Shown piece by piece: positions 31,186 to 47,832 of a stretch of 64,000 nucleotides of DNA. The stretch lies in contig NZ_AUAZ01000010.1 in NCBI RefSeq assembly GCF_000428985.1, positions 1 to 64,000 on the forward strand. Reading direction: 5' to 3'. Position 1 is the first letter of the stretch. Each line of letters starts with the position of its first letter. The notes beneath the pieces were generated by a model. That model did no database searches and was not told the origin of the DNA. It saw nothing but the letters and a program-made list of their open reading frames with translations. Source of the DNA: Marinobacterium litorale DSM 23545 (GTDB taxonomy: Bacteria; Pseudomonadota; Gammaproteobacteria; Pseudomonadales; Balneatricaceae). A program made the translations under genes and the position numbers.

Positions 31186-32049
31186 TTACAGTGCATCCAC
31201 CGGAATCTTGAGGTAGCGGATGCCATTCGCTTCCGGCGGTGGCATCTCACCGGCGCGCATGTTGACTTGCACCGAAGGGAGTATCAGCTTGGGCATGCCC
31301 AACCCGGAATCCCGTTCCTGCCTCAACTGGACGAATTGTGCTTCGGATATACGTTCATTGACGTGAACATTGGATGCCTTCTCCTCTCCAATGGTGGTTT
31401 CATTCAAAAACTCATCACGTCCTTCAGCCTTGTAATCGTGACACATGAATACGCGGGTTTCCGCCGGTAACTCGAATAATTTGCGAATAGAGTGGTAAAG
31501 CGTTGCCGCATCTCCGCCGGGGAAGTCGCAGCGCGCAGTGCCGTAATCGGGCATAAACAGGGTATCGCCCACGAAGGCTGCATCGCCAATCAGGTAGGTC
31601 ACGCAGGATGGCGTGTGGCCTGGGGTATAGATCACGCGGGCGGGGATTTGGCCGATGGTGAAGGTTTCCCCATCAGCGAACAGGTGATCGAATTGACTGC
31701 CATCGGCCGCGAACTCCGGCCCGGCATTAAACAGACGTCCGAAGGTTTCCTGAACCCGGCCGACCTGGTTTCCGATCGCCAGTTTCCCGCCTAACTTTTC
31801 GCGTATATGTTGGGCGGCACTGAGGTGATCGGCATGGACGTGCGTTTCAAGAACCCACTCGAGCGTGTAACCGTGCTCGTGGATATAATTGACGATTTGA
31901 TCGGCGCTGGTAGTCGATGTCTGGCCTGATTCAGCGGTATAGTCGAGAACCGAGTCGATGACGGCGCACTGTCCGGATACCTGGTCAGCCACTACGTAGC
32001 TGTAGGTGAAGGTATCGGCGTGGAAAAACGCTTCAATATGCATCGCCAT
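31186..32049 (-). CDS. persulfide dioxygenase (ETHE1/Blh-like metallo-beta-lactamase fold)
   Basis: 287 residues. The HVHADH motif of the metallo-beta-lactamase fold, then TPGHTPSCVTY, VGDTLFMPDYGTARCDFPGG and VFMCHDY give the mononuclear iron site (two His and one Asp) of persulfide dioxygenases. It oxidises glutathione persulfide to sulfite and glutathione. The C-terminal extension (NERISEAQFVQLRQERD, LPSVQVNMRAG) is typical of the bacterial Blh type. AGGAG lies eight bases before the ATG. It heads the operon with SulP and rhodanese, and a palindrome covers its -10. Confidence 0.92.
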   Translation of the reverse strand: MAMHIEAFFHADTFTYSYVVADQVSGQCAVIDSVLDYTAESGQTSTTSADQIVNYIHEHGYTLEWVLETHVHADHLSAAQHIREKLGGKLAIGNQVGRVQETFGRLFNAGPEFAADGSQFDHLFADGETFTIGQIPARVIYTPGHTPSCVTYLIGDAAFVGDTLFMPDYGTARCDFPGGDAATLYHSIRKLFELPAETRVFMCHDYKAEGRDEFLNETTIGEEKASNVHVNERISEAQFVQLRQERDSGLGMPKLILPSVQVNMRAGEMPPPEANGIRYLKIPVDAL

Positions 32050-32081
32050 CGGCTTATCTCCTGCGTGCTGCTTGATAATTA

Positions 32082-32119
32082 GGTATATCTAATATACCAG
32101 TTGGATCGTTTTAGCCCAA
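32082..32119 (-). promoter_or_regulatory. promoter of the persulfide dioxygenase operon with palindromic operator
   Basis: On the minus strand TTGGGC (32114-32119), a 17-bp spacer and TATATT (32091-32096). The -10 lies inside the perfect palindrome GGTATATCTAATATACC (32082-32098). The core TATATTAGATA recurs at 38216 and at 47,799-47,809, both before sulfur or thiol-stress genes, so a shared repressor is likely. Confidence 0.7.
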
Positions 32120-32300
32120 CCTTTGCAGCAGCTTATAAACTCATCAGGGATGAGGTTCGCCTGTTAATGGTCTACCTTTGACCTGTAGAGCAGGCATTTA
32201 ATGTATCCGCTCCATGGACCGGTAGCCAACGATAATAATAATCGCGAAACTCTGACTTTTACCGGATGTCCCTTGCGTAACCGGCGCGTGATCGCGTCCG

Positions 32301-32325
32301 CGCCTGTCTGTCTGGCAGACAGGCG
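32301..32325 (+). promoter_or_regulatory. 5'-leader hairpin of acnA
   Basis: Perfect 10-bp stem CGCCTGTCTG/CAGACAGGCG with five-base loop TCTGG, ending 31 bp before the aconitase ATG. There is no T-run, so a structured leader rather than a terminator is likely. The remainder of the 32,099-32,356 gap shows nothing else I can assign. Confidence 0.5.
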
Positions 32326-32356
32326 AATCAAGTTGATCGGATTAAGGAGACAGTCG

Positions 32357-35032
32357 ATGCTGCGATCGAAAGATTCGTTTAATACCCGAAGCACCCTTGA
32401 GGTCAACGATACAACGTACACTTACTACGCGCTGAAGGAAGGTGAGCTCGGCCAGATACCGGGCGTTGACCGGTTGCCGGTATCGATCAAGGTTCTGCTC
32501 GAGAACCTGCTGCGGCATGAAGATGGGGTGGCGTGCAGCCGCGAGGATATACTCGCACTGGCGAATAGCGGAGGGCGCGCGGGAGATGATGAGTTTGCCT
32601 ATCATCCGGCCCGGGTTTTGATGCAGGACTTTACCGGTGTGCCGGGCGTGGTGGATCTGGCCGCGATGCGCAATGCACTGGTCAAGCGCGGGGCAGATCC
32701 GCAGAAGATCAACCCGCTGTCACCGGTGGATCTGGTGATCGACCACTCCGTGACCATCGATCGTTTCGGCAACGCGGAGGCGTTCAAGGAAAATGTCGAG
32801 ATCGAGATGCAGCGCAACCTGGAGCGCTACCAGTTTCTGAAGTGGGGGCAGGGGGCTTTTAATAATTTCAGCGTGGTGCCGCCGGGCACCGGCATCTGCC
32901 ACCAGGTTAACCTGGAGTACCTGGCCAAATCGGTCTGGACCGAAGAGGCTGACGGCTGCACTCTCGCGTATCCCGATACTCTGGTGGGTACCGACAGTCA
33001 CACCACCATGATCAACGCACTGGGTGTACTCGGCTGGGGTGTCGGCGGCATCGAAGCCGAAGCGGCCATGCTGGGCCAACCTATCTCCATGCTGATTCCC
33101 GATGTGGTTGGTTTTGAACTGACCGGCGAGCTGCAGGAGGGAATCACCGCCACCGACCTGGTTTTGCGCGTGGTGCAGATGCTGCGCGAACAGGGTGTCG
33201 TGGGTAAGTTTGTCGAATTTTATGGCGATGGCCTGGATCATCTGCCGATCGCCGATCGCGCCACCATCGCCAATATGGCACCGGAATATGGTGCTACCTG
33301 TGGTTTCTTCCCGATAGATGCTCAGACGATTAACTACCTGCGTCTTAGCGGGCGGGATGAGCAGACACTGGCGCTGGTTGAGAGTTACTGCCGTGCCCAG
33401 GGAATGTGGCGTGACGAAGACTACAAAACGCCTGAGTTCGCAGCCACACTGCACCTGGATATGTCCAGCGTCGAACCCAACCTGGCCGGTCCCAAGCGCC
33501 CGCAGGATCGGGTTCCTGTGAAAGGCCTCAAGGGGGCTATCGACGAGTATATCGAGCTTGCCGGCAAAAAGGGTCAGATCGATACCCCAGCGCCGCTGGA
33601 CGGATCTGGTGAGCCCATGCATCACGGCGATGTGGTGATTGCCGCCATCACCTCCTGTACCAACACCTCGAATCCGGCGGTTATGCTGGGCGCAGGCCTG
33701 GTTGCACGCAAGGCGGTAGAAAAAGGGCTTAAGGTCAAACCCTGGGTGAAAACATCATTGGCCCCCGGCTCACGTGTGGTGACCGAATACCTGAATCAAT
33801 CCGGTGTACAGAAGGATCTGGATGCGCTGGGCTTTAACCTGGTGGGCTATGGTTGCACCACCTGTATCGGTAACTCGGGCCCTTTGCCCGATGAGGTAGA
33901 GAAGACGATCAAGGACAACGATCTGATTGTCTCATCGGTTCTGTCTGGTAACCGCAACTTCGAGGGGCGTATCCATCCACTGGTACGTGCCAACTGGCTG
34001 GCATCGCCACCGCTGGTTGTTGCCTACGGTATTGCCGGCACCACCCGCATCGATCTTTCCAGCGAGCCGCTCGGAACCGGCCGCGATGGTGAACCGGTCT
34101 ATCTGAAGGATATCTGGCCGACGAACGCCGAGATCGATGCGCTGGTGCAGAAGATCGATAACGAGATGTTCCGTCGCGAGTACAGCTCCGTGTTCGAGGG
34201 GGATGCAAGCTGGCGCGCCATCGACAGCGGCTCCGGAGCCACCTACGACTTCCCGCCCGAGTCCACCTATATACAGGAACCGCCGTTCTTTGAGCCGGAA
34301 TACGCCGGCAATGTGGGGGATATCAAGGGTGCATCAATTCTGGCGATGCTGGGTGACTCGGTAACCACCGACCATATCTCGCCGGCCGGGGCGATCCCGA
34401 AAGACAGCCCGGCAGCGCAGTTCCTGCGCGATCACGGTGTTGAAGAGAAAGACTTTAACTCCTACGGTTCGCGCCGCGGTAACCACGAGATCATGATGCG
34501 CGGTACCTTCGGCAACATCCGCATTCGCAATGAGATGACACCGGAGATCGAAGGGGGTTATACTCGCAAAAGAGGAGACACGGAAGCCCGCTTTATCTAT
34601 GACGTGGCGATGGACTACCAGCAGGCGGGTACGCCCAGTGTTGTTGTGGGCGGCAAAGAGTACGGCACGGGCTCCAGCCGTGACTGGGCGGCCAAGGGGA
34701 CCCTCTTATTAGGCGTGAAAGCGGTCATCGTTGAAAGCTTTGAGCGAATTCACCGCTCCAACCTGGTGGGTATGGGGGTTCTCCCGCTTCAGTTTACCGG
34801 TGAGGATACGCGCAAGACGTTAGGTCTTACCGGTGACGAGCAGATCGATATCCTGGGCTTATCGGGTGAGCTGCAGCCTAAACAGATACTGACGGGTGTT
34901 ATTCATTACCCTGGGGGGGACAGCCGCGAGATCGAGTTGCTATCGCGGCTGGATACCTGGGTTGAGGTGAAATACTACCAGTCCGGCGGTGTCTTGAGCT
35001 TTGTGCTTGATCGTCTGGCCAGCGATAGCTAA
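32357..35032 (+). CDS. acnA: aconitate hydratase A
   Basis: 891 residues, the length of E. coli AcnA. ATG 32357 is chosen because AAGGAG (32344-32349) precedes it; the frame runs further upstream. Iron-sulfur ligands are in SCTNTSNP and GCTTCIGNSGPL. Catalytic-region motifs LVGTDSHTTMINALGVLGWG, DHISPAGAI and GSSRDWAAKGT are present. It interconverts citrate and isocitrate in the TCA cycle through a [4Fe-4S] cluster. It is divergent from the persulfide dioxygenase operon. AcnA apoproteins of this class can bind mRNA. Confidence 0.97.
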   Translation: MLRSKDSFNTRSTLEVNDTTYTYYALKEGELGQIPGVDRLPVSIKVLLENLLRHEDGVACSREDILALANSGGRAGDDEFAYHPARVLMQDFTGVPGVVDLAAMRNALVKRGADPQKINPLSPVDLVIDHSVTIDRFGNAEAFKENVEIEMQRNLERYQFLKWGQGAFNNFSVVPPGTGICHQVNLEYLAKSVWTEEADGCTLAYPDTLVGTDSHTTMINALGVLGWGVGGIEAEAAMLGQPISMLIPDVVGFELTGELQEGITATDLVLRVVQMLREQGVVGKFVEFYGDGLDHLPIADRATIANMAPEYGATCGFFPIDAQTINYLRLSGRDEQTLALVESYCRAQGMWRDEDYKTPEFAATLHLDMSSVEPNLAGPKRPQDRVPVKGLKGAIDEYIELAGKKGQIDTPAPLDGSGEPMHHGDVVIAAITSCTNTSNPAVMLGAGLVARKAVEKGLKVKPWVKTSLAPGSRVVTEYLNQSGVQKDLDALGFNLVGYGCTTCIGNSGPLPDEVEKTIKDNDLIVSSVLSGNRNFEGRIHPLVRANWLASPPLVVAYGIAGTTRIDLSSEPLGTGRDGEPVYLKDIWPTNAEIDALVQKIDNEMFRREYSSVFEGDASWRAIDSGSGATYDFPPESTYIQEPPFFEPEYAGNVGDIKGASILAMLGDSVTTDHISPAGAIPKDSPAAQFLRDHGVEEKDFNSYGSRRGNHEIMMRGTFGNIRIRNEMTPEIEGGYTRKRGDTEARFIYDVAMDYQQAGTPSVVVGGKEYGTGSSRDWAAKGTLLLGVKAVIVESFERIHRSNLVGMGVLPLQFTGEDTRKTLGLTGDEQIDILGLSGELQPKQILTGVIHYPGGDSREIELLSRLDTWVEVKYYQSGGVLSFVLDRLASDS

Positions 35033-35054
35033 CAGGTCTGCTCAAGCTCTTCTT

Positions 35055-35093
35055 CCGTACCGGTTTTCAGCACAGCCTGAGAATCCGGTACGG
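35055..35093 (+). terminator. hairpin downstream of acnA
   Basis: Stem CCGTACCGG/CCGGTACGG (35055-35063 with 35085-35093), 21-base loop, no T-run. It may be an mRNA-stabilising end or a weak terminator. Confidence 0.4.
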
Positions 35094-35166
35094 GAGGTCA
35101 GTCTGATCCATCGGCAGCCTATGCTAGAGTAGCCATTCACGTTTTGGGCTGCTGAGGAGCTGAACA

Positions 35167-36057
35167 ATGGCGCCGCTATCCTTCGCTGAAGACTTTTCCA
35201 GGTTCACAGTGGATACCGGTGAGGTCAGCATCCATCTGGCCCATGCGGGCGAGGGTGAGCCGCTGCTCCTGTTGCACGGGTATCCGCAAACGCACTGGAT
35301 CTGGCACCGGGTGGCGCCGGTTCTGGCTGAACGCTTTCATGTCATCTGCCCGGACCTTCGCGGCTATGGAGAAAGCAGTTGCCCGCCGGGAAAGCCGGAT
35401 CACGCCGGCTACGCCAAGAAAACGATGGCCACCGATATGATCGCGGTGATGGATCACTTTGGCTACGCCAGTTTTGCGGTGGCAGGCCATGACCGGGGCG
35501 CTCGGGTTGCGCATCGAATGGCGCTGGATTATCCAGACCGGATCAAAGGGCTTTGCGTGATGGATATCGCGCCGACGCTGCATATGTTCGATCATACCGA
35601 CCAGGCATTTGCCACCGGTTACTATCACTGGTTTTTCCTGATTCAACCTGATGGGCTGCCCGAGCATATGATCGGGCTTGACCCTGATTACTACCTGTCG
35701 GAAAAGCTCCGGCGATGGGCGGCACCGGGTGCCCTGTTTGATCCACAGGCGGTGGCTGAATATCAGCGCTGTTTTCGACAGCCCGAGGTGATTCACGCCA
35801 GCTGCGAAGATTACCGGGCCGCCGCAACCATAGACCTGATTCATGACCGGGCGGACTGCAATCGACAGGTCGAGCCGCCTTTGCTGGTGCTCTGGGGAGA
35901 CAAGGGCTTTGTCCATCGTACCTATGATCTTTTGTCAGTTTGGCAAGGATATGCCAGGCGGGTCGAAGGCCACTCCCTGTCCAGTGGACACTTCCTGCCT
36001 GAAGAAACACCGGAGCAGGTCATCGATGCATTACAGCTGTTTTTTAACACTCGCTGA
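35167..36057 (+). CDS. fluoroacetate/haloacetate dehalogenase-like alpha/beta hydrolase
   Basis: 296 residues, alpha/beta hydrolase fold. Nucleophile Asp109 lies in GHDRGAR (an Asp, not Ser), with Arg110 and Arg113 for the carboxylate, Asp133 (MDIAPT) and His275 (SSGHFLPEE) completing the triad. His154-Trp155 and Tyr216 match the halide pocket of characterised fluoroacetate dehalogenases (Asp110, Arg111, Arg114, Asp134, His155, Trp156, Tyr219, His280). This strongly suggests hydrolysis of short 2-haloacids. It forms an operon with a DASS-type transporter 18 bp downstream. Confidence 0.85.
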   Translation: MAPLSFAEDFSRFTVDTGEVSIHLAHAGEGEPLLLLHGYPQTHWIWHRVAPVLAERFHVICPDLRGYGESSCPPGKPDHAGYAKKTMATDMIAVMDHFGYASFAVAGHDRGARVAHRMALDYPDRIKGLCVMDIAPTLHMFDHTDQAFATGYYHWFFLIQPDGLPEHMIGLDPDYYLSEKLRRWAAPGALFDPQAVAEYQRCFRQPEVIHASCEDYRAAATIDLIHDRADCNRQVEPPLLVLWGDKGFVHRTYDLLSVWQGYARRVEGHSLSSGHFLPEETPEQVIDALQLFFNTR

Positions 36058-36075
36058 AAAAGGACACACGTAAAA

Positions 36076-37467: not shown

Positions 37468-37472
37468 CCGTA

Positions 37473-38090
37473 CTATGTGCGGACGAGCGATGCGCCAATG
37501 GCCACCAACGCAGCGCCATTCAACCCGTTTACCACCCGACCCAGGCGGGGCATTTTCAGCCGACGTGCGCGTTCCGCAATCAATGCCAGTGAGCCAAGCC
37601 ACACTGCACTGATCAGGAAATGGATCAGCGCCATGATTAATGATTGAGCCAGTGCCGAGCCTGCAGGGTCAATAAACTGGGGCAGAAACGCCATATAAAA
37701 GATCACGGGTTTGGGGTTCAGTACATTGGAGAGAATGCCCTCGCTGAGCGATCGGAGTGGCTTCAAGCGACGGGTGGGAACGCCCTCTGTTGCCATACTG
37801 GGAAACCCGCGCAAAGCGCTGCGCAGGGATACCATCCCCAGCCAGATCAGGTAAATGGCACCGGCTAGTTTGATGGCTGTAAAAGCCCAGGCTGACTGGA
37901 GCAGAATCACTGATATGCCGAGAGCAGACACCGTGGCATGAACGAACAGGCCACTGGATATGCCCAGCGTGGTCAGCATCCCGTCTTGCCACCCGCCACG
38001 TGCGCTATTCCTCAACACTAACAGTGTATCCACGCCAGGAGAGAGGGTCAGCAGCACAATAGCGACCAGAAACGTAAGTGCGTGGTCCAT
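37473..38090 (-). CDS. LysE/RhtB-family amino-acid exporter
   Basis: 205 residues, six membrane segments. Family motifs are at the start (LLTLSPGVDTLLVLRNSARG) and in the middle (GAIYLIWLGMVSLRSA; GILSNVLNPKPVIFYMAFLP). Such proteins export amino acids or related small molecules by proton exchange. Its stop lies five bases from that of the convergent transporter. It is divergent from the SQR operon. Confidence 0.93.
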   Translation of the reverse strand: MDHALTFLVAIVLLTLSPGVDTLLVLRNSARGGWQDGMLTTLGISSGLFVHATVSALGISVILLQSAWAFTAIKLAGAIYLIWLGMVSLRSALRGFPSMATEGVPTRRLKPLRSLSEGILSNVLNPKPVIFYMAFLPQFIDPAGSALAQSLIMALIHFLISAVWLGSLALIAERARRLKMPRLGRVVNGLNGAALVAIGASLVRT

Positions 38091-38204: not shown

Positions 38205-38236
38205 TTACTATATGCTATATTAGATAAAACTAATTA
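38205..38236 (+). promoter_or_regulatory. candidate operator/-10 of the SQR operon
   Basis: TATATTAGATA at 38216-38226, identical in eleven bases to the sites at 32.1 and 47.8 kb; flanks CTAATTA (38201-38207) and TAATTA (38231-38236) add dyad symmetry. TATATT would be the -10. No good -35 is visible, so an activator may be needed, or the site acts mainly by repression. Confidence 0.6.
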
Positions 38237-38251
38237 AAAGAGGTGCTTTCC

Positions 38252-39583
38252 ATGCGGCATCAACAGCCAGATAAAGCATTCAGTCCCCGGCGCAGGGCAC
38301 TGCTTACAGCGGGCGCGGCAACCGGGTTACTTTCGGTTGTGCCAGCGGGTCAGCTCTGGGCAAAACAGAGAACTTCGGCGCGTATTCTTATTATCGGCGC
38401 GGGTGCTGCCGGCTTGGCTACCGCAAACCGGCTACAACGTTCTTTGGCGGGTGCCCGCATCACTTTGGTCGGTGCGCGCCAGCCCCATCTTTATCAGCCG
38501 GGTTTTACACTGGTTGCGTCCGGGCTTTGGGATCGACAGCAAGTCATTACCGATACGCGGGATTGGATACCGGGTGGCGTGCGCTGGGTGGAAGCCGATG
38601 CGGTGGCGTTTGACCCGCAAGCGCGGCAGGTGGCTTTGAGCAATGGTGCTTCTGAAGCCTATGACGTGCTGATAATCGCAACCGGATGCCAACTTAATTA
38701 CGCCGATATCGACGGTATGACTCCGGAGCTGATTGGCCAGAATGGGATTGGTAGCGTGTACGCCAGTCCAGCGGCGGCAGAGGCGACAAACAACCAGATC
38801 GAACAGCTTATTGCGCGTGGAGAAGGCCGGGCGATCTTTACGTTACCGCCCACGGCTATCAAATGCGCAGGAGCTCCTCTCAAGATGACCTTCACAACGT
38901 TGAACCGACTGGAGGATACGGGGCGGCGAGATCAGTTTGACGTGAACTTTTTCACCCCCTTTTCGCAGAAGGTCTTTTCAGTCCCGGTATACAACGAGTT
39001 CGTTCTGAACCGTTGGCAACAGCAGGGTGTTAACCTGCACGATAACTGCACCTTAACCGGCATTGAGCCAGAGAACCGGACTGCGTATTTCAGCCGCGAA
39101 AACGGTGAGACTGTACGCGAGGACTTCGATTTCATTCACGTAGTCCCGCCCATGAGTGCGCCTGATGCTGTCCGCCAGAGCGAGTTGGCCTGGCAGGACG
39201 GAAGCTGGGCAGGGCAGTGGCTGGAAGTCGACCAGTATTCCCTGCAACATCGACGCTTCCCCGAAATTTTCGGCATCGGCGATGTCATCGGAACACCTTT
39301 TGGCAAGACCGCCGCCAGCGTTAAGAAGCAGGCTCCGGTTTTGGAGGAGAACATTCTCTCCTATCTGGCCGGGCGACCCCTGGAAGCGCGATACAACGGC
39401 TATACCTCCTGTCCTCTGATTACCCGAATTGGACAGGCTGTCCTGGCGGAGTTCGGCTACGGTGGTGAACTCTTGCCCTCATTCCCATTCATTGATCCCA
39501 CCGAGGAATCCTGGGCGGTTTGGGTTATGAAGGAAAAAATGCTGCAACCGGCGTACTACGCCATGCTAAACGGCCGTGTTTAA
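38252..39583 (+). CDS. sulfide:quinone oxidoreductase, Tat-exported (type II/SQOR-like)
   Basis: 443 residues from ATG 38252 (AAGAGG eight bases upstream; GTG 38243 is less likely). A Tat signal peptide (SPRRRALLTAGAATGLL, cut after LWA) precedes an FAD domain (IIGAGAAGLATANRL). Candidate redox cysteines are Cys146 (ATGCQ), Cys205 (IKCAGAP) and Cys387 (YTSCPLIT); the last two motifs are those of the mitochondrial-type SQOR. It would oxidise sulfide to persulfide or sulfane sulfur and reduce quinone. Export across the membrane is unusual for that type. It heads a four-gene operon. Confidence 0.85.
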   Translation: MRHQQPDKAFSPRRRALLTAGAATGLLSVVPAGQLWAKQRTSARILIIGAGAAGLATANRLQRSLAGARITLVGARQPHLYQPGFTLVASGLWDRQQVITDTRDWIPGGVRWVEADAVAFDPQARQVALSNGASEAYDVLIIATGCQLNYADIDGMTPELIGQNGIGSVYASPAAAEATNNQIEQLIARGEGRAIFTLPPTAIKCAGAPLKMTFTTLNRLEDTGRRDQFDVNFFTPFSQKVFSVPVYNEFVLNRWQQQGVNLHDNCTLTGIEPENRTAYFSRENGETVREDFDFIHVVPPMSAPDAVRQSELAWQDGSWAGQWLEVDQYSLQHRRFPEIFGIGDVIGTPFGKTAASVKKQAPVLEENILSYLAGRPLEARYNGYTSCPLITRIGQAVLAEFGYGGELLPSFPFIDPTEESWAVWVMKEKMLQPAYYAMLNGRV

Positions 39584-39595: not shown

Positions 39596-39910
39596 ATGAG
39601 TCTGCAACAGATACTTGTTGTGCTGGCCTACAGCGCCAAACCCTACTGGTGGTTGATTGCTCTGGCGATGTTGGCCTTGGCGGTCGCATTTACGCTGGGC
39701 TCTATCCGCCGTGGATCGATTAAGCGGCCGGCCTATGCCATAGCGGCAGCCGCTGGGCTGACAGCGGCACTTATTGCTCCGGCATTAACCCACTCGTCGT
39801 TGAGCTATGTGGTGACGCCTACGGATTGGTTGGCCCTGGTTGGAATTGGTGTCTCAACCGCTTTTTACACACTGCTTTTACTCTGGCCTTTACTGCGCCG
39901 GGAATCGTGA
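39596..39910 (+). CDS. small membrane protein of the SQR operon
   Basis: 104 residues with three to four hydrophobic segments (WWLIALAMLALAVAFTLGSI; AYAIAAAAGLTAALIAPAL; LVGIGVSTAFYTLLLLWPLL). AAGGAGG is just upstream of its ATG. It may anchor the exported SQR or connect it to the quinone pool. No family with known function is recognised. Confidence 0.65.
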   Translation: MSLQQILVVLAYSAKPYWWLIALAMLALAVAFTLGSIRRGSIKRPAYAIAAAAGLTAALIAPALTHSSLSYVVTPTDWLALVGIGVSTAFYTLLLLWPLLRRES

Positions 39911-39938: not shown

Positions 39939-40538
39939 ATGCTGAAAATGAAGCCTCTGGCTCTGGCCGCTTTATTGGGCGTTTTAAGTGTGCCGGCACT
40001 GGCTGCTGACGAGCCGAGAAAGGAGAGCGCTAAAACCACGCTCGGTCTCTACGTCACCGCAAAGGAGGCGTGGACAATGTTGCAGGATGATCCGAAGGCG
40101 ATTCTGGTGGATGTGCGCGATCCGGTGGAAGCCAAGTTTACCGGCTTTGCCTCAGAAACTGATGTTCATGTGCCCTGGATGGTTGCAGATCCGAGCCGTT
40201 GGAGCGAAAAACAGAATAGCTGGGCGATGGCCAGGAATGTGAATTTTGAGCAGCAATTGATGGAAAGACTCAATGCACTCGGGGCAAGCCAGGAGACAGC
40301 GGTCATTGTCATGTGCCGTTCCGGGTCAACGCGTAGTGCGCCGGTTGTAAACCTCCTGGCAGAAAAGGGTTTTACCAACGCCTGGACGGTCGTCGATGGC
40401 TTCGAGGGCTCCAAGCTGACCGAGGGGGACTCGAAGGGGGTGCGGGCTGTGAACGGCTGGCGTAACTCGGGGTTACCCTGGAGCTATAAAATCGATGCCG
40501 ATGTTGCCTGGATGCCTGAAAAGAAGGAGGCAGATTAA
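39939..40538 (+). CDS. periplasmic rhodanese
   Basis: 199 residues from ATG 39939 (AGGAG at 39924-39928). A Sec signal peptide (MLKMKPLALAALLGVLSVPALAA) is followed by one rhodanese domain: AILVDVRDPVEAKF, catalytic Cys in VMCRSGSTRSAP, and VVDGFEG. The insertion around VPWMVADPSRWSEKQNSWAM is longer than in simple rhodaneses. It should accept sulfane sulfur made by the SQR in the periplasm. It lies in the operon SQR-membrane protein-rhodanese-DsrE-like. Confidence 0.88.
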   Translation: MLKMKPLALAALLGVLSVPALAADEPRKESAKTTLGLYVTAKEAWTMLQDDPKAILVDVRDPVEAKFTGFASETDVHVPWMVADPSRWSEKQNSWAMARNVNFEQQLMERLNALGASQETAVIVMCRSGSTRSAPVVNLLAEKGFTNAWTVVDGFEGSKLTEGDSKGVRAVNGWRNSGLPWSYKIDADVAWMPEKKEAD

Positions 40539-40540
40539 TT

Positions 40541-40966: not shown

Positions 40967-40977
40967 CCATGCTGTTG

Positions 40978-41007: not shown

Positions 41008-41019
41008 CTCAGGCCAACC

Positions 41020-42018
41020 TTAATCGAAAGGCTGTGGCTTCGGTGTGGCGTCGGTGGAAGGCGGCAGTATCGGCAGCTGGAAGCTGGGCTGATCACCGGT
41101 TAACGATTTCAGGAAAGCGACGATCTGGGCATTTTCCTGATCGCTGAACTTACGGCCCAGTTGCAGACGTCCCATGATATCGACCGCCTCGGTGAGTGTT
41201 TCGGCCTCGCCGTCATGGAAATAGGGATAGGTCATCTCCACGTTTCTAAGGGTGGGAACCTTAAACATGAATCGGTCGGCATCCTTGCCGGTTACAGCGA
41301 CTCGGCCTTCTACTTCATTGTTGGTCTGGTAGGGCTCAACCACACCCATTTTCTGGAACGAGGTGCCGCCCACGGCGGGACCGTTGTGACAGGCTACGCA
41401 ACCGCTGCTTTTAAACAGCTCATACCCGGCAACCTCATCCTGTGTCAGCGCATCCTTGTCGCCCAGGAGCCACTGGTCAAAGGGTGAATTAGGGGTGACC
41501 AGTGTTTTCTCGAACTCGGCGATGGCGTCGGTCACCTTATCGATCGTGATCTCCTCTGAGCCGAACGTCAGACGAAAATCGTGCACGTAACCGGGAATCG
41601 ATTTCAGCACGTCCACGGCCAGTGTATGCGTAAATGCCATCTCACCCGGGTTCGCAATGGGGCCACCGGCCTGTTCTTTAAGATCCGCCGCGCGGCCGTC
41701 CCAGAACTGGGCGACGTTCAGACTGGAGTTGAGTACCGTGGGCGAATTAATCGGCCCCTGTTGCCAGTTATGGCCGATGGAGGTCTTCAGGTTGTCCGTT
41801 CCTCCCATACTCAGGTTATGGCAGGAGTTGCAGGAGATAAAGCCGGATTTCGACAGCCGCGGGTCGAAATAGAGCTTCTTGCCCAGTTCCGACAGTGCCA
41901 AATTGACTTCTTTGACCGGTTCAATGGGCTGAATGGGTTCTTCAGCGAAGGCAGACATTGAGCCGAGCGCCATAGCGGCACTGATGGTCGAGGCGATGAA
42001 AGCGCGGTTCGATCTCAT
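41020..42018 (-). CDS. di-haem cytochrome c peroxidase
   Basis: 332 residues from the ATG at 42018 (AAGGA upstream). There is a Sec signal (AFIASTISAAMALGSMSAFA) and two CxxCH haem sites: CNSCH in the N-terminal domain and CVACH in the C-terminal domain. Family motifs GKKLYFDPRLSKSG, RNVEMTYPYFHDG and a final LTGDQPSFQLPILPPS are present. It reduces H2O2 in the periplasm with electrons from cytochrome c. A TetR-type palindrome lies in its promoter. Confidence 0.95.
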   Translation of the reverse strand: MRSNRAFIASTISAAMALGSMSAFAEEPIQPIEPVKEVNLALSELGKKLYFDPRLSKSGFISCNSCHNLSMGGTDNLKTSIGHNWQQGPINSPTVLNSSLNVAQFWDGRAADLKEQAGGPIANPGEMAFTHTLAVDVLKSIPGYVHDFRLTFGSEEITIDKVTDAIAEFEKTLVTPNSPFDQWLLGDKDALTQDEVAGYELFKSSGCVACHNGPAVGGTSFQKMGVVEPYQTNNEVEGRVAVTGKDADRFMFKVPTLRNVEMTYPYFHDGEAETLTEAVDIMGRLQLGRKFSDQENAQIVAFLKSLTGDQPSFQLPILPPSTDATPKPQPFD

Positions 42019-42067
42019 AGTAGGCATCCTTTCGATTGGAGCGTTACCGTTAGTCCACATCATTACT

Positions 42068-42081
42068 TGACCGTTCGGTCA
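42068..42081. promoter_or_regulatory. TetR-type palindrome before the peroxidase gene
   Basis: TGACCGTTCGGTCA, a perfect 6-2-6 palindrome, ends 50 bp before the peroxidase start codon. Its form fits TetR-family operators. No TetR gene lies in the window. Confidence 0.5.
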
Positions 42082-42196
42082 TGACATTGACCTGAATCAG
42101 TCGGGGGGATGATGTGAACGTCGAAGACACCTTTCAGGTGTAGACCAATGCGTTGGCGCCTGCCAACCAGAATCCCCGTAGACAGACATCATCTGA

Positions 42197-43588
42197 TCAG
42201 TGTTCCATTGCATGTTTCAGGTCACGCAACAAGGAACGAACGCCCTCTTCAAGTACCGGGTGGTAATAGGGCATCTCAAGCAGCCGTTCTACCGTCAACT
42301 TCTGCTCCACGGCCCAGGCCAGCAGGTGAGCCAAATGCTCCACATCGGGGCCGACCAGTTCTGCTCCCAGCAGTTTGCCGCTGTGTTTGTCAGCCCAGGC
42401 CTTCATCATTCCTTCGGTACGATTCAGCACCTTGGCGCGAGCCTGATCGCTAAAGGCGAAGGAGGCGCAGGCGATCTGGTCCGGTTTATACTGTCGGATC
42501 TTGCTGGCGCTTATCCCCAGTGTGGCAATCTGAGGATCACTGAAGACCACTGCCAGAGGCGTGGTGCGATGACCGGTGCGCAGATCCGGATAGCGGCCGG
42601 CGTTGTTGCCGGCAATGCGTCCCTCATCAGATGCTTCGTGCAGCAGCGGCAGATGGTTGTTGGCGTCGCCGGCGATAAAAATAGCGCTGTCGCCACATTG
42701 CAGTGTCGCAGAATCGAAGTGGGGGATACCCTGATCATCCAGCGTCAATGAGGTGTTCTCCAGCCCCAGTTGGTCCACATTGGGGCGTCGGCCGGTGGCA
42801 GCGAGCAGGTACTCAAAGGTTTCATTCTGAAGAGTGCCACTCTGGTCTTTGAAACCTACGGTTACGCCGGAGTCGGTTCGCTCAACACTGTCTACTTGCG
42901 CATCGGCATCCAGCGGATACTCGCTACTAAACGCCTTGAGGGCAGATGCTCGCACTTCACTGTCCTGAAGTGGCCCGAGCGCGCCGCCAATGCCGAACAT
43001 CCGTATCCTGACGCCGAGACGATGCAGTGCCTGGCCAAGTTCGAGGCCGATAACGCCGGGGCCAAACACCACGACTGATTCCGGCAGGGTATCCAGTTCG
43101 AAAAGGTCATCGTTGCTTAACAGTCGATCCTCGGCTGCACGCAGAAAACCGGGAATCGCAGGCCGGGAGCCGGTGGCGATAACAATCCGTTGGGCTTCGA
43201 TCTGCTCGCCAGACTCTGTCTCAAGCCGATGATCAGCAACAAAACGAACCCGTTGGTGGATCTGGTCAGCGTTGGGAATCGCTTCCATGCCTTTGAGCAC
43301 ATTGTCGACAAAGCGGTCACGGTATTGGCGAACCCGCTCCAGTACAGCCTTGCCGTCAATCCGGATGTCGCTTACCGTAACGCCGAATGCGGTCGCCTGG
43401 CGCGCATGCCAGGCGCTGTCAGCGGCGGCAATAAGCAGTTTGCTGGGCATACAGCCAACGCGGGCACAGGTGGTACCCAGGGGGCCTGGATCGATCAGAA
43501 CAACTGAATCCGAGTATTTGCGGGCCTGGCGGTAGGCATTAAGCCCGGCGCTGCCTGCGCCGATGATCGCGATCTCGGTGGTTCGCAT
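42197..43588 (-). CDS. dihydrolipoamide dehydrogenase-like flavoprotein
   Basis: 463 residues, class I pyridine nucleotide-disulfide oxidoreductase. FAD motif IIGAGSAGLNAYR, redox pair Cys41-Cys46 (CARVGC), NAD-binding VVFGPGVIGLELGQAL, FAD-contact IFIAGDANNHLPLLHEASDEG and C-terminal active base in YYHPVLEEGV. It stands alone with no 2-oxoacid dehydrogenase genes beside it, so its partner lipoyl protein is unknown; sulfur oxidisers use such enzymes with lipoate-binding proteins, which is a possibility only. Confidence 0.88.
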   Translation of the reverse strand: MRTTEIAIIGAGSAGLNAYRQARKYSDSVVLIDPGPLGTTCARVGCMPSKLLIAAADSAWHARQATAFGVTVSDIRIDGKAVLERVRQYRDRFVDNVLKGMEAIPNADQIHQRVRFVADHRLETESGEQIEAQRIVIATGSRPAIPGFLRAAEDRLLSNDDLFELDTLPESVVVFGPGVIGLELGQALHRLGVRIRMFGIGGALGPLQDSEVRASALKAFSSEYPLDADAQVDSVERTDSGVTVGFKDQSGTLQNETFEYLLAATGRRPNVDQLGLENTSLTLDDQGIPHFDSATLQCGDSAIFIAGDANNHLPLLHEASDEGRIAGNNAGRYPDLRTGHRTTPLAVVFSDPQIATLGISASKIRQYKPDQIACASFAFSDQARAKVLNRTEGMMKAWADKHSGKLLGAELVGPDVEHLAHLLAWAVEQKLTVERLLEMPYYHPVLEEGVRSLLRDLKHAMEH

Positions 43589-43724
43589 GTCGAGACTCCC
43601 TTCAACGGGTGGGTTTTGATCTATTCGTACTGGCTAATTTAACGATTGCATCGAGCGGTCTGCAACAGTCGATGCTGCCTGAAAGGGTAGACGAGGATAC
43701 GTGGCGGGTGGGGCAGAATACGAA

Positions 43725-43748
43725 AACGGCCCCCAAGTGGGAGCCGTT
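43725..43748 (-). terminator. terminator of rhlE
   Basis: In the minus-strand RNA AACGGCUCCC-ACUU-GGGGGCCGUU forms a ten-pair stem with one G-U, followed by UUCGUAUU. It begins six bases after the rhlE stop. Confidence 0.75.
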
Positions 43749-43753
43749 ATCAT

Positions 43754-45049
43754 TCAGCGTTTTTTAGGACTGCGTGGTGTATTCGCACCCTGGCTGCGCG
43801 GTTGGTGACCGCGGTGGGTATCACCGGAGCGCTGTCCGTCACGGTGTTGAGGCTTGGGCTTCTTGGGGCGGCGACGCCGAGCCGATTTTTGCTCCAGGCG
43901 GGATTCGGGCAGCGCATGGACCGGGTCGAAACCGTCGATAACTTCCCGGGTTAGCAGCTTGCTGGTCAGCCGCTCAATGGCCCGGAGTTGAGCGATCTCA
44001 TCGGCGCAGACCAGAGAGACGGCCTGTCCGGTGGCGCCGGCGCGACCGGTACGACCGATGCGGTGGACGTAGTCTTCCGGCACATTGGGCAGATCGAAGT
44101 TCACCACCTGAGGCAGCTGATCGATGTCCAGACCGCGGGCTGCAATATCGGTGGCTACCAGTGCTTGAAGGCGGTTGTCCTTGAACTCCGCCAGGGCCTT
44201 GGTGCGGGCGTTCTGACTCTTGTTCCCGTGAATCGCGGCCGCTTTGATGCCCGCTTTCTCCAGCTGAGTGGTGAGCTTGTTGGCCCCATGTTTGGTACGT
44301 GTAAATACAAGGACCTGATGCCAGCCGTTATCGTTGATCAGTTTGATCAACAGCGGTGCCTTCTGCTTCTTGTCCACCGGTGCTATCCACTGCTTGACTG
44401 TTTCCGCTGTGGAGTTGCGCGGCGTAACGGAGATTTCAACCGGATCGTGCACCAGTCCCTTGGCAAGCTCACGGATCTCTTTGGAGAAGGTCGCGGAGAA
44501 CAGCAGGTTCTGGCGCTTGGGTGGCAGGACAGCCAGGATCCGTTTGATATCGTGGATAAAGCCCATATCAAGCATCCGGTCGGCTTCGTCCAGCACCAGT
44601 ACTTCCAGATGATCGAAGCGAACCGCATTCTGCTTGTACAGGTCGAGCAAGCGACCGGGCGTGGCGATCAATACGTCGGCGCCTTTGCGCAGCGCCATCA
44701 TCTGCGGGTTGATCTTCACGCCACCGAATACAACGGTTGAGCGCAGAGGCAGGTGCTTGCCATAGGTTTCCACGCTCTGGCCGACCTGAGCGGCCAGCTC
44801 ACGGGTGGGGGTGAGAATCAGCACTCGCGCCTGGTTTGCGCCCGCTCTCTGGCCGGGCAGCAGACGTTCCAGAATGGGCAGGGTAAAGCCGGCGGTTTTG
44901 CCAGTACCCGTCTGGGCTGCGGCCATGACATCCTGGCCCTGAAGAACGGCGGGAATCGCCTGTTGTTGAATCGGAGAAGGGGTGTCATAACCCTGTTCAG
45001 CAACCGCTTTGACAATAGGGTCGGACAAGCCAAGGCTGGCAAAACTCAT
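43754..45049 (-). CDS. rhlE: DEAD-box RNA helicase, RhlE-like
   Basis: 431 residues. All helicase motifs are present: Q motif near the start, [44 protein letters not shown], then RGLDI and [10 protein letters not shown]. The C-terminal 50 residues are basic and low-complexity ([15 protein letters not shown]), typical of RhlE. It remodels RNA, for example in ribosome assembly or mRNA decay. Confidence 0.95.
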
Positions 45050-45165
45050 TAATAACTCTCTGTTTAAATGGGACGAGAACCGGGGAGGTACGGTAAGCCG
45101 GGCAACAGCCGGTGCAGAAACGCTCTCGGAAGGGTGCGAAGCTTACCCTAAAGTGCCCTCTGTGG

Positions 45166-46398
45166 CTATGTTGGCAGATCAGTCTGAGGGCGCTCGTCCA
45201 AGCGATCACGGCCGGTTAGTTTAGGGAACCAGTACATCCACAGCGCAGTTACCGCCAAGGTTCCCACACCTCCGATAACAATGGCCGGCACGGCACCGGC
45301 CAGTGACGCCACAACCCCGGCGCGGAACTCGCCCACCTGGTTTGAAGTGCTGATAAAGAGTGAATTGACGGCGCTGACACGGCCTCTCATCTCATCCGGT
45401 GTTTCCAGCTGAACCAGGGTCGAGCGTATAACCACGCTGATCATATCCGCGGCTCCCATGATGGTCAGCGCGGCCACCGACAGCCAAAGCGATTGGGACA
45501 ACCCGAACAGAATGATCATTGCGCCAAAGACAGCGACGGAAGCAAACATCTTGACGCCGACACGACTGTCGATGGGGCGCCAGGCCAGCCAGATCGACAT
45601 GGCAACGGCTCCGACAGCGGGTGCACTGCGCAGCATGCCGAGGGCCCAGGGGCCCGTCTCCAGAATATCCCGGGCGACAATAGGCAGTAGGGCGGTCACG
45701 CTGCCGACCAGTACGGCCACCATATCCAGTGAAATCGATCCGAAGATCACCGGGTTGCGCCAGGTGAATTTGAAACCGCCCAATACAGAGTCCAGCGTGG
45801 CGCGCTGCTTTTCGCGTTGCTCATGTTGATAGTCAAGGCCAAAGAGGATAACCGCCGAGAGCAGAGCGCAGGCAGTGCTGGTGCCATACAGAGCCCCTGC
45901 GCCAAATATATAGATAACGCCGCCCAGCGCCGGGCCGACGATGGTGGTGGCTTCTCGGCCAGAGGCGGTCCAGGTCATCGCGGGGGCCAGCAGATCCGCA
46001 CCGACGATCCTGGGCACCATCGCCTGGGTTGCCGGCATTTCGAAAGCCCGTGCCGCGCCCATGGCGATACAGCAGCTATAGATAATTGCCGGTGTTATCA
46101 CATCGAGCACACTGGTGACCGTCAGTACGGCAATGGTCAGGGTGATGACGCTGCGGCTGATCAGCATGATTGTGCGGCGGTTCAACGTATCCGCCAGATG
46201 CCCACCGTAGAGTGTCAGTGCAAGCTGCGGTAGATAGCGCGCGAGCCCGACCAGACCGAGACTCAGGGCGCTGTCGGTCAGGTTGTAAATCTGCCACCCC
46301 ATCCCCACCAGCAGCATCTGAAAGGCAAAAGATGCAGCCATCTGACCGATCCAGAAACGCATGAAGGTCTTGTGCTTTAGTAGGGAAGGTGTGGTCAT
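45166..46398 (-). CDS. MFS transporter (MFS_3/enterobactin-exporter-like)
   Basis: 410 residues, twelve hydrophobic segments. Family pattern: RFWIGQMAASFAFQML, LGLVGLARYLPQLALTLYGG, ADTLNRRTIMLISR, and TPDEMRGRVSAVNSLFISTSNQVGEF (split here). Members export siderophores, drugs or unknown molecules. It is a single gene with an inverted repeat (46446-46461) about 50 bp upstream of its start. Confidence 0.88.
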   Translation of the reverse strand: MTTPSLLKHKTFMRFWIGQMAASFAFQMLLVGMGWQIYNLTDSALSLGLVGLARYLPQLALTLYGGHLADTLNRRTIMLISRSVITLTIAVLTVTSVLDVITPAIIYSCCIAMGAARAFEMPATQAMVPRIVGADLLAPAMTWTASGREATTIVGPALGGVIYIFGAGALYGTSTACALLSAVILFGLDYQHEQREKQRATLDSVLGGFKFTWRNPVIFGSISLDMVAVLVGSVTALLPIVARDILETGPWALGMLRSAPAVGAVAMSIWLAWRPIDSRVGVKMFASVAVFGAMIILFGLSQSLWLSVAALTIMGAADMISVVIRSTLVQLETPDEMRGRVSAVNSLFISTSNQVGEFRAGVVASLAGAVPAIVIGGVGTLAVTALWMYWFPKLTGRDRLDERPQTDLPT

Positions 46399-46445
46399 GC
46401 CAGTCCTGAAAGAGATTGAACAGAAGTAAGAGATGAGGCGGGAAG

Positions 46446-46461
46446 TGTAACGGATGTTACA
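46446..46461. promoter_or_regulatory. inverted repeat upstream of the MFS gene
   Basis: TGTAACGGATGTTACA, a perfect 6-4-6 dyad, 48 bp before the MFS start codon; likely an operator. The remaining gap to 46,682 shows nothing else that I can assign. Confidence 0.5.
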
Positions 46462-46682
46462 GTTGGATGCTTATTAGTTTTTCTTCAAAGTGATCCGGTT
46501 TTACGAAGATCAGCGGGTAAGCGCGGGTTGGGAGCGATGGTGTATCTAACTCAAAAGCGGAGCATTCCGGGCGTCTTTGCATTATGACGTAATGATGAAC
46601 TGCGCAGAATAGCGTGTTCCGGGGACATCATGCGCAACATTAAACTCGCGCAATATCGCTATGCTAGGCGGCCTTTAAGCCG

Positions 46683-47000
46683 TTAAGTAGATCCACTTTC
46701 GAGAAATTGTCTTACCGCCGTGTCGGGATCACTCTCGTTAGAAACTTGCAGTTGAATCTCTTTACGGCTCAGCCTCCGTGTTAACCCGCGACCGGTACTG
46801 GCCGTTATCAAAACATCAATGTCATCCAGCGGGTGTGGCTCGTGAGAATCAGAATCGTGGAACGACTCGGCTTTGCTCAGCTCAAGTAACCGCTTGGAAG
46901 CTACCTGTCCATCTTCGATGGTATAAATCCAGAACTTTCGACAGCGACCAGGATGGTCTGTGACTGTTTTTCGATTCTGGCTGGTGACAGCAATTTTCAT
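46683..47000 (-). CDS. NifX/NafY-like dinitrogenase cofactor-family protein
   Basis: 105 residues from the ATG at 47000; an ATG three codons earlier is possible. KIAVTSQNRKTVTDHPGRCR and FWIYTIEDGQVASKRLLEL match the NifX/NifB-C-terminal fold, followed by DDIDVLITASTGRGLTRRL. These small proteins carry iron-molybdenum cofactor precursors in diazotrophs, but many are found outside nif clusters with unknown roles. No nif gene is nearby; hydrogenase and peroxiredoxin genes are. Confidence 0.75.
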   Translation of the reverse strand: MKIAVTSQNRKTVTDHPGRCRKFWIYTIEDGQVASKRLLELSKAESFHDSDSHEPHPLDDIDVLITASTGRGLTRRLSRKEIQLQVSNESDPDTAVRQFLESGST

Positions 47001-47058
47001 AGTCGGCATCCGGGCGCAGTGACGATTGCGCTGTGAACCATTAATAGAAAACCTGAGC

Positions 47059-47080
47059 GCCACCGCTTGAAAGCGGTGGC
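47059..47080 (-). terminator. terminator of the peroxiredoxin gene
   Basis: Stem GCCACCGCT-TGAA-AGCGGTGGC (nine pairs); the minus-strand RNA continues into GCUCAGGUUUUCU. It begins about 34 bases after the peroxiredoxin stop. Confidence 0.65.
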
Positions 47081-47113
47081 CTCTGGGAAGTGCCGCTTTA
47101 AACTCTTTGGCGA

Positions 47114-47770
47114 TTACAACTGCTTGGTGCAGAAGTAAAAGTCCACACAGTCATACTGATCCGACTCCATACGCTCGTTGGCACCCTCAGCCGTCGCAGA
47201 GGGTGGCACGATAACCCTGTCCCCTGGCTGCCAGCCTTCCGGGGTTGCTACGCCATTCTCGTCACTGGTCTGCAACGCATCCAGTAGACGCAGGAATTCC
47301 GGGATGGATCGACCGTTGCTCATGGGGTAGTAAACCATTGCGCGCAGGATTCCGTTGGGATCGATGATAAAGGTCGCGCGAACCGCAGACGTATCTGCAG
47401 CGCCGGGGTGGATCATTCCGTATGCCCGGGCGACGTCCATCTTCAGGTCGGCGATGATCGGAAACGGAATCTCGACCCCGAATTTTTCCTTGATATTGCG
47501 CATCCAGGCGATATGCGAGTGATGGCTGTCGATGGACAGTCCCAGTAACTCACAGTTGCGTTTGTTGAACTCCGGCGCCATCTTGGCAAAAGCCATGAAC
47601 TCAGTCGTGCATACCGGGGTGAAATCAGCCGGATGAGAAAAGAGTACGAGCCATTTCCCCTTGTAGTCATCGAGGCTCTTAACCCCATCAGTTGTCGGTG
47701 CGGTAAACTCTGGAGCTCGCTCGTTCAAACGCGGGAGGCCTGAGGTAGTAGCGGTTTCTGCGGGTTCCAT
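47114..47770 (-). CDS. peroxiredoxin, Prx6-type
   Basis: 218 residues. Peroxidatic Cys54 in HPADFTPVCTTE, then GLSIDSHHSHIAWMRNI and FPIIADLKMDVARAYGM, and the long C-terminal part (PEGWQPGDRVIVPPS) typical of Prx6-type enzymes. The extreme C terminus adds CVDFYFC, giving extra cysteines. It reduces peroxides and possibly organic persulfides. Its promoter shares the operator core found before the sulfide oxidation operons. Confidence 0.93.
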   Translation of the reverse strand: MEPAETATTSGLPRLNERAPEFTAPTTDGVKSLDDYKGKWLVLFSHPADFTPVCTTEFMAFAKMAPEFNKRNCELLGLSIDSHHSHIAWMRNIKEKFGVEIPFPIIADLKMDVARAYGMIHPGAADTSAVRATFIIDPNGILRAMVYYPMSNGRSIPEFLRLLDALQTSDENGVATPEGWQPGDRVIVPPSATAEGANERMESDQYDCVDFYFCTKQL

Positions 47771-47790
47771 AACGGTGCTCCTTACTATTG

Positions 47791-47832
47791 ATTAGATATA
47801 TCTAATATAAAGGCCGTTAATGTTCATGTGAA
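47791..47832 (-). promoter_or_regulatory. peroxiredoxin promoter with palindromic operator
   Basis: On the minus strand TTCACA (47827-47832), a 17-bp spacer and TATATT (47804-47809). The -10 sits at the edge of the perfect palindrome ATTAGATATATCTAAT (47791-47806). It carries the same TATATTAGATA core and register as the persulfide dioxygenase promoter. Confidence 0.75.

What the first reader, a model, noticed from the sequence alone, without database searches (positions are those of the whole stretch)
31186..47832. Shared operator core TATATTAGATA at three dispersed sulfur/thiol promoters
The same eleven bases occur at 32,086-32,096 (minus), 38,216-38,226 (plus) and 47,799-47,809 (minus), each within a larger dyad and placed on the -10. 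They control persulfide dioxygenase-SulP-rhodanese, SQR-rhodanese-DsrE and peroxiredoxin. This defines a small regulon, probably under an ArsR-type persulfide sensor (BigR/SqrR/YgaV), not encoded here, and links the peroxiredoxin to persulfide stress.
Basis: partly seen in the sequence, partly recalled or inferred. Interest (0 to 1): 0.7.

Follow-up and report, generated by a model that had tools for sequence, protein, structure and literature searches.

The report
Persulfide-sensor operator shared by sulfur genes
Three scattered sulfur-detoxification promoters in this marine bacterium carry the same short mirror-image DNA site, which also sits beside the gene for a likely sulfide-stress sensor elsewhere in the genome and in relatives, so they very probably form one sulfide-response gene set, of a known kind but larger than first thought.

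Summary
TATATTAGATA occurs exactly three times in the window, as stated, with none in 100 shuffles. It is a -10 hexamer fused to one arm of a 16-bp dyad, ATTAG-N6-CTAAT. The predicted ArsR gene exists in the same genome (contig C8): 119 aa, with the Cys pair of the BigR/SqrR/YgaV/HlyU persulfide sensors and an exact dyad 125 bp upstream, shared with a divergent RND gene. The genome has 9 exact dyads (about 1.7 expected). Seven sit at arsR/RND, ygaP-like/uspA, PDO, SQR, Prx, SLAC1 and cydDC; weaker ones precede osmC and tsdBA. In 8 relatives, 22 of 31 exact dyads fall at six of these loci. The dyad precedes 11 of 13 osmC genes (one mismatch allowed); control patterns are nearly empty. Genomes without a close sensor show none (0 of 10 regions against 28 of 69). 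Peroxiredoxin is tied in by a prx-PDO-rhodanese operon with the dyad in one relative, and by an arsR divergent from prx in an alphaproteobacterium. Binding and persulfide response are inferred. A new, larger regulon of a known kind.

The parts
32078..32093 (.). operator dyad ATTAGATATACCTAAT (minus strand) of the PDO operon
   Evidence: exact dyads also upstream of PDO orthologs in four relatives
32091..32096 (-). probable extended -10 (TGGTATATT), overlapping the dyad by 3 bp
   Evidence: sequence; inference
31186..32049 (-). persulfide dioxygenase (stand-alone; matches the dioxygenase part of the Blh profile)
   Evidence: NF040641 394.7 bits over profile 143-423, below the cut-off of 625; PDB 9g8t and 4ysk, named only as beta-lactamase-domain proteins, and ETHE1 4chl E 2e-22
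29342..31144 (-). SulP family anion transporter, 41 bp after PDO
   Evidence: TIGR00815 over cut-off; gap
28978..29358 (-). rhodanese, third gene of the PDO operon (ATG at 29358 more likely than GTG 29397)
   Evidence: PF00581; starts; choice of start is inference
38219..38234 (.). operator dyad ATTAGATAAAACTAAT of the SQR operon
38216..38221 (+). probable extended -10 (TGCTATATT)
   Evidence: sequence; inference
38252..39583 (+). sulfide:quinone oxidoreductase with Tat-like leader
   Evidence: PDB 6oi5 (mitochondrial SQR) E 1e-65; NF049943 193 bits, below its cut-off of 525; leader by eye
39596..39910 (+). small membrane protein (weak DUF5368)
   Evidence: PF17336 E 4e-4, below cut-off
39939..40538 (+). 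rhodanese-domain protein, start uncertain
   Evidence: PF00581 E 3e-7; start candidates
   Evidence: no Pfam or NCBIfam hit; a 54% homolog lies beside the dyad in relative G007
47791..47806 (.). operator dyad ATTAGATATATCTAAT (perfect palindrome) of the peroxiredoxin gene
47804..47832 (-). sigma-70-like promoter TTCACA-17-TATATT
47114..47770 (-). peroxiredoxin (AhpC/TSA with 1-cysPrx_C)
   Evidence: NF009668 over cut-off; PF00578, PF10417
46683..47063 (-). NifX-like (Nitro_FeMo-Co) ORF 50 bp after prx, possibly co-transcribed
   Evidence: PF02579; co-transcription is inference

Best explanation
ATTAG-N6-CTAAT is the operator of a persulfide-sensing ArsR-family repressor of the BigR/SqrR/YgaV/HlyU group, encoded elsewhere in the genome (C8:16279-16638, minus). 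When little sulfane sulfur is present, the reduced dimer sits on the dyad at the -10 region and blocks RNA polymerase. Sulfide is oxidised to persulfides or polysulfides, which link Cys49 and Cys115; the dimer releases DNA and the set is induced: SQR and rhodanese, PDO, SulP and SLAC1 transporters, osmC and peroxiredoxin, tsdBA, ygaP-like/uspA, an RND exporter, probably arsR itself and, in this strain, cydDC. Shown: the sites, their conservation, the sensor gene and its cysteines. Inferred: binding, repression, inducer and release.
For: Nine exact dyads in 4.38 Mb, about 1.7 expected, P about 7e-5 with independent bases. Seven lie 16-40 bp before the start of a sulfur, thiol or sensor-linked gene. 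Of six HTH_5 hits in the genome only the two-Cys one has an exact dyad near it. Cys49 and Cys115 are invariant in 13 chosen sequences including E. coli YgaV. Closest solved structures are HlyU, SqrR, YgaV, NolR and BigR. Arms are kept while the N6 varies upstream of arsR relatives: 24 of 69 exact, 28 of 69 with at most one mismatch, about 0.25 exact expected. 22 of 31 exact dyads in 8 relatives fall at six of the same loci. In 114 upstream regions there are 25 exact and 46 near dyads, against 1 exact and 17 near over ten control patterns together. Outside the window's genome, near dyads occur in 28 of 69 PDO, SQR, Prx, CydD and OsmC regions of genomes with a close sensor and 0 of 10 of genomes without, Fisher p 0.012 (regions not independent, sensor threshold set afterwards).
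Against: No binding or expression data. One-mismatch sites are not enriched genome-wide (34 against 57 reversed). Two of the nine exact sites (C4 inside a coding sequence, C5 before a sigma-54 regulator) look unrelated. Nine of 31 sites in relatives fall elsewhere, and in one genome (G014) the reversed pattern was commoner, 4 against 2. Near dyads are absent from many PDO and SQR regions (found in 11 of 27 and 6 of 17); the cydD dyad is exact only here (1 of 16). All 24 exact arsR-upstream dyads are in loci with a divergent RND gene (24 of 24), and in this genome the dyad is nearer RND (40 bp) than arsR (125 bp); several Marinobacterium arsR genes about 80% identical, without that neighbour, lack it. 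The BigR equivalog cut-off is not reached (92.7 of 155 bits).
Confidence: 0.85

Rival explanations
1. The dyad is bound by another transcription factor (MarR/OhrR, Rrf2 or similar thiol sensor), and the ArsR gene merely neighbours some of its targets.
For: Exact arsR-upstream dyads occur only where RND is divergent (24 of 24), and the dyad is nearer RND; osmC-type genes are often OhrR-controlled (recalled); no binding data.
Against: The dyad also lies ahead of a ygaP-like gene that precedes arsR in four Neptunomonas loci. Target dyads were found only in genomes with a close sensor (28 of 69 regions against 0 of 10). The 16-bp frame fits known operators of this group (SqrR ATTC-N8-GAAT, PMC9774250 passages; HlyU 17-bp palindrome, PMC4330345 passages). 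Seven of nine exact sites in this genome are at sulfur, thiol or sensor-linked genes. No MarR, OhrR or Rrf2 gene was searched for.
Confidence: 0.09
2. The ArsR acts as an activator or anti-silencer at the dyad, as HlyU does at hlyA, rather than as a repressor.
For: HlyU proteins are the closest solved relatives, and HlyU enhances hlyA from a site 173 bp upstream of its promoter (PMC4330345 abstract).
Against: Seven exact dyads lie 16-40 bp from start codons, and at PDO, SQR and Prx they overlap the likely -10, a position where binding would block polymerase.
Confidence: 0.05
3. Chance resemblance of A+T-rich -10/discriminator sequences; no common regulator.
For: The 11-mer contains a TATATT -10-like hexamer; one-mismatch dyads are not enriched genome-wide.
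Against: Spacing and permuted-arm controls are almost empty at the same promoters; 22 of 31 sites in relatives lie at orthologous loci; three 11-mers against 0.00 in shuffles.
Confidence: 0.01

Closest known systems
SqrR regulon of Rhodobacter capsulatus
   Same: ArsR two-Cys sensor; SQR, a rhodanese and a candidate peroxiredoxin rise over 10-fold with sulfide or loss of sqrR (PMC9995734, passages).
   Different: SqrR site is given as ATTC-N8-GAAT (PMC9774250, passages); here ATTAG-N6-CTAAT, the same 16-bp frame with different inner bases. OsmC, SLAC1, TsdBA, CydDC and RND targets were not named in the passages seen.
BigR of Xylella, Agrobacterium and Acinetobacter
   Same: Controls a dioxygenase/sulfurtransferase operon (PMC5823870, abstract in the listing) or a second PDO with two membrane proteins (PMC7315123, passages).
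   Different: Profile score below the BigR equivalog cut-off; here the predicted targets are dispersed over several contigs.
YgaV of E. coli
   Same: Cys pair; binds near its own promoter elements (PMC9774250, passages); linked to ygaP, as in four Neptunomonas loci here.
   Different: In the window's genome arsR and the ygaP-like gene are about 6.5 kb apart, each with a dyad; E. coli ygaV has no close dyad upstream (3 mismatches, reached by 84% of shuffles).
HlyU of Vibrio
   Same: Closest solved structures, with the same QSALSQHLA segment; reacts with persulfides, not H2O2 (PMC10509353, passages); its published site matches 8 of the 10 arm bases, as about 7% of shuffles do.
   Different: HlyU enhances transcription from an upstream site; no toxin genes are involved here.

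Membership tests
Persulfide-sensing ArsR group (BigR/SqrR/YgaV/HlyU, SSN cluster 4 of PMC10509353) | ArsR winged-helix protein | tested here: met
   PF01022 48.1 bits; PDB HlyU 3jth E 6e-28, then SqrR, YgaV, BigR (6o8n is named SqrR in a passage)
Persulfide-sensing ArsR group (BigR/SqrR/YgaV/HlyU, SSN cluster 4 of PMC10509353) | one Cys in alpha-2 and one in alpha-5 | tested here: met
   Cys49 and Cys115 invariant in 13 chosen sequences including E. coli YgaV; helices assigned by alignment only, no model made
Persulfide-sensing ArsR group (BigR/SqrR/YgaV/HlyU, SSN cluster 4 of PMC10509353) | intraprotomer polysulfide bridge with persulfides, loss of DNA binding | not testable with these tools
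   needs purified protein
Persulfide-sensing ArsR group (BigR/SqrR/YgaV/HlyU, SSN cluster 4 of PMC10509353) | colocalises with sulfurtransferase or sulfur transporter genes | tested here: inconclusive
   in this genome arsR neighbours RND and, 6.5 kb away, a ygaP-like gene; more distant homologs lie next to PDO in Sneathiella and others; target dyads at PDO and SQR operons
Persulfide-sensing ArsR group (BigR/SqrR/YgaV/HlyU, SSN cluster 4 of PMC10509353) | binds its own promoter | tested here: inconclusive
   exact dyad 125 bp upstream of arsR but nearer the divergent RND gene; exact in 24 of 69 relatives, all with divergent RND; binding not tested
BigR equivalog (NF040642) | score above curated cut-off | tested here: not met
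   92.7 of 155 bits
SqrR-type operator ATTC-N8-GAAT | ATTC and GAAT arms upstream of target genes | tested here: not met
   the window's three dyads read ATTA...TAAT; exact ATTC-N8-GAAT in 1 of 84 target upstream regions and 0 of 69 arsR regions
As(III)-sensing ArsR | CxC motif | tested here: not met
   absent in the C8 protein; present (CVC) in the C11 paralog
FisR or CstR persulfide systems | sigma-54 activator or CsoR-type repressor | not tested
   not searched in this genome

The most novel reading that the evidence does not exclude
One persulfide-sensing ArsR directs a dispersed, genome-wide sulfane-sulfur regulon in Marinobacterium and its relatives. In it, an OsmC-like protein is the most conserved target, a SLAC1/TDT transporter is the exporter for sulfite made by the dioxygenase, TsdBA links thiosulfate, an RND/LolA-like/outer-membrane set is a persulfide-induced export route, and this strain has recruited cydDC to couple thiol export and bd-oxidase assembly to sulfide.
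Probability: 0.35. Interest if true: 0.65.

Novelty: new member of a known kind. Interest (0 to 1): 0.5.

Why it matters
It turns a three-site hunch into an operator model with a named sensor gene and about nine candidate promoters that can be tested. It gives candidates for open questions: which transporter removes sulfite after SQR and PDO, what OsmC-like proteins and peroxiredoxins do under sulfane-sulfur stress, and why an RND exporter stays beside this sensor from Marinobacterium to Colwellia. It also adds a case where operators of this sensor group differ in their inner bases while keeping a 16-bp frame.

Tried and rejected
The 11-mer as operator: rejected; of the six further candidate promoters outside the window none carries it exactly (sequences). 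One-mismatch sites as regulon members in general: rejected, no excess over the reversed control. The C4 site (inside a coding sequence that looks like BREX PglX, by eye) and the C5 site (before a XylR-type regulator) were set aside as probable chance hits. cydD: exact dyad only in the window's genome (1 of 16; 3 of 16 with one mismatch), kept as lineage-specific and less sure; the full 16-mer equals the prx site, chance expectation near 2e-4. tsdBA: this genome's site has 2 of 10 arm mismatches; 9 of the 12 loci scanned show TTAG-N6-CTAA with at most one mismatch 684-782 bp upstream of the tsdA match, often as two sites 15 bp apart. A control made while checking this report: 9 of 11 loci (one cut contig left out) against 0 to 2 of 11 for nine other patterns. 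E. coli ygaV promoter as a copy of the dyad: rejected. Homologs next to PDO in alphaproteobacteria lack this dyad, and so does the arsR-prx intergenic region of L149. Paper searches and the passages seen showed no operator of this form; I make no wider claim.

Rows dropped before counts: strong homologs only were scanned, namely 27 of 30 PDO, 17 of 30 SQR, 11 of 30 Prx, 16 of 30 CydD and 13 of 30 OsmC loci, and 30 ArsR loci out of 55 genomes with a match. 12 of 15 stronger TsdA loci were scanned. The window's own genome is included in these counts except in the sensor test. One search scanned 500 bp upstream (130 bp for one cut contig), searches scanned 300 bp, so counts differ. In one search one control is the dyad read backwards and another has each arm read backwards in place. 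In one search genes were called by a simple longest-ORF rule; three of the 22 counted sites (all in G006) fell inside overlapping ORFs that I judged spurious, because the dyad lies beside RND/arsR, uspA and PDO. One search left out 9 of the 31 relative sites and added one G004 site; its matrix is therefore conditioned on the pattern.

Full report
Observation. The 11-mer TATATTAGATA is present three times in the 64-kb window, at the stated coordinates and strands, with none in 100 dinucleotide shuffles. Reading around it shows what is shared: ATTAGATATACCTAAT, ATTAGATAAAACTAAT and ATTAGATATATCTAAT, that is ATTAG-N6-CTAAT, 28, 17 and 20 bp before the start codons of PDO, SQR and Prx. The 11-mer arises because a TATATT hexamer overlaps the left arm by three bases. 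Prx has a 10-of-12 sigma-70-like promoter there; PDO and SQR have TGn-TATATT.

Genome-wide. The window lies in a 4.38-Mb genome of 64 contigs. The nearest named relatives of its ArsR are Marinobacterium (up to 93% identity), followed by Neptuniibacter, Neptunomonas and Amphritea. Exact dyads: 9, against about 1.7 expected from base composition, P about 7e-5 with independent bases. They lie before PDO, SQR and Prx in the window; 40 bp before cydD (C2; CydD and CydC above their TIGRFAM cut-offs); 16 bp before a SLAC1/TDT transporter (C3); in the arsR/RND intergenic region (C8:16764); between a YgaP-like membrane protein and a UspA protein at C8:23252; and at two unrelated-looking places (C4, C5). 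An OsmC gene has a one-mismatch dyad 17 bp upstream (C12), and a cytochrome pair whose second gene resembles thiosulfate dehydrogenase TsdA has TTAGATATATCTAA about 27 bp upstream (C42). Allowing one mismatch anywhere gives 34 places against 57 for the reversed pattern, so weak matches mean nothing by themselves.

The sensor. Six places in the genome match the ArsR HTH profile. The C8 protein has Cys49 (LILC) and Cys115 (YCP), both invariant in 13 chosen sequences including E. coli YgaV, which is 45% identical. The closest solved structures are Vibrio HlyU, SqrR, YgaV, NolR and BigR, and the segment QSALSQHLA is the same in HlyU. It stays under the BigR equivalog cut-off, 92.7 of 155 bits. The C11 paralog carries a CVC motif instead. 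No other of the six hits has an exact dyad near it.

Conservation. Within 400 bp upstream of 69 ArsR relatives in named genomes, 24 have an exact dyad and 28 one with at most one mismatch, where the flanks predict about 0.25 exact. The six central bases change and the arms do not. All 24 are loci where an RND gene is divergent from arsR (24 of 24); in four Neptunomonas loci the exact dyad lies 639-677 bp upstream, ahead of a ygaP-like gene that precedes arsR. Six Marinobacterium arsR genes without an RND neighbour (L108-L110, L112, L113, L120; 72-81% identical) have no exact dyad. So the dyad marks the neighbours of the sensor at least as much as the sensor gene. In eight relative genomes scanned without regard to genes, 31 exact dyads were found against 17 for the reversed control. 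Of the 31, 22 are at six loci: arsR/RND 6, ygaP/uspA 4, osmC 4, PDO 3, SLAC1 3, SQR 2 (with ortholog places). Nine are elsewhere, some inside genes. By ortholog, at most one mismatch, this genome included: osmC 11 of 13, PDO 11 of 27, SQR 6 of 17, Prx 3 of 11, cydD 3 of 16. Over 114 upstream regions of 300 bp (one shorter), exact dyads number 25 and near dyads 46; ten control patterns give 1 exact and 17 near in all. The window's genome supplies six of the 114 regions, and orthologs are not independent. Leaving that genome and the arsR regions out, near dyads occur in 28 of 69 regions of genomes with a close ArsR relative and in 0 of 10 of genomes without.

Peroxiredoxin. In 38 genomes searched (this one included) only one other close ortholog was found (G004, 89%; the next is 47%). 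There it heads a prx-PDO-rhodanese gene row with an exact dyad upstream. In a Minwuiaceae genome (L149), an ArsR homolog with both cysteines (by eye) is divergent from a prx (70% identical) followed by a rhodanese and a relative of the small secreted protein, though without this dyad. In Rhodobacter capsulatus a candidate peroxiredoxin rises over 10-fold with sulfide or loss of sqrR (PMC9995734, passages), so the link as such is not new.

Mechanism. In the passages seen, members of this sensor group form a polysulfide bridge between the two cysteines and then leave DNA (PMC10509353, PMC12423496, PMC9995734). Dyads that overlap the likely -10 fit repression in the reduced state. The target list forms a path: SQR makes persulfide, PDO makes sulfite, SulP or SLAC1 could export it, TsdBA handles thiosulfate, OsmC and Prx are thiol peroxidase families, and CydDC exports thiols (roles from general knowledge of the families). 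The export roles of SulP and SLAC1 are inference; the kinship of SLAC1 with fungal sulfite pumps is recalled, not tested. In Acinetobacter, sulfide raises cydAB (PMC7315123, passages), which is in line with cydDC here. Binding, inducer and direction of control are not shown.

Known or new. The sensor class and the core targets are known. What is new here, as far as the searches went, is the operator ATTAG-N6-CTAAT, its conservation in these marine bacteria and in Colwellia, and the added targets. SqrR's site, given as ATTC-N8-GAAT (PMC9774250, passages), has the same 16-bp frame. Nine papers were opened, for passages only; others were seen as search listings; none was read whole.

Noticed in passing
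L051:6821-11474 (C8): An RND/MMPL exporter, a LolA-like protein and a third protein that looks like an outer-membrane protein (by eye; no Pfam or NCBIfam hit) lie divergent to arsR, with the dyad between, in Marinobacterium, Neptuniibacter, Amphritea and Colwellia loci.
   Followed up: partly
L331 and L334 (relatives G002, G003): An exact dyad lies 79 bp from a small protein that looks, by eye, like a TRAP transporter subunit in two related genomes; possible extra target.
   Followed up: no
Colwellia loci L127-L130, L132: A second, one-mismatch dyad 26 bp upstream of the exact one before arsR; tandem sites 15 bp apart also occur before tsdB.
   Followed up: partly
Sneathiella loci L139, L140: ArsR homolog divergent from PDO with a different dyad in between (TATCTATAGATA), so the operator may have changed between lineages.
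   Followed up: partly
window 48189-51073: Genes that look like the small and large subunits of an uptake [NiFe] hydrogenase lie just beyond the peroxiredoxin promoter, on the other strand; identified by eye only.
   Followed up: no
window 41020-42063: Di-haem cytochrome c peroxidase/MauG family gene convergent with the SQR operon.
   Followed up: no
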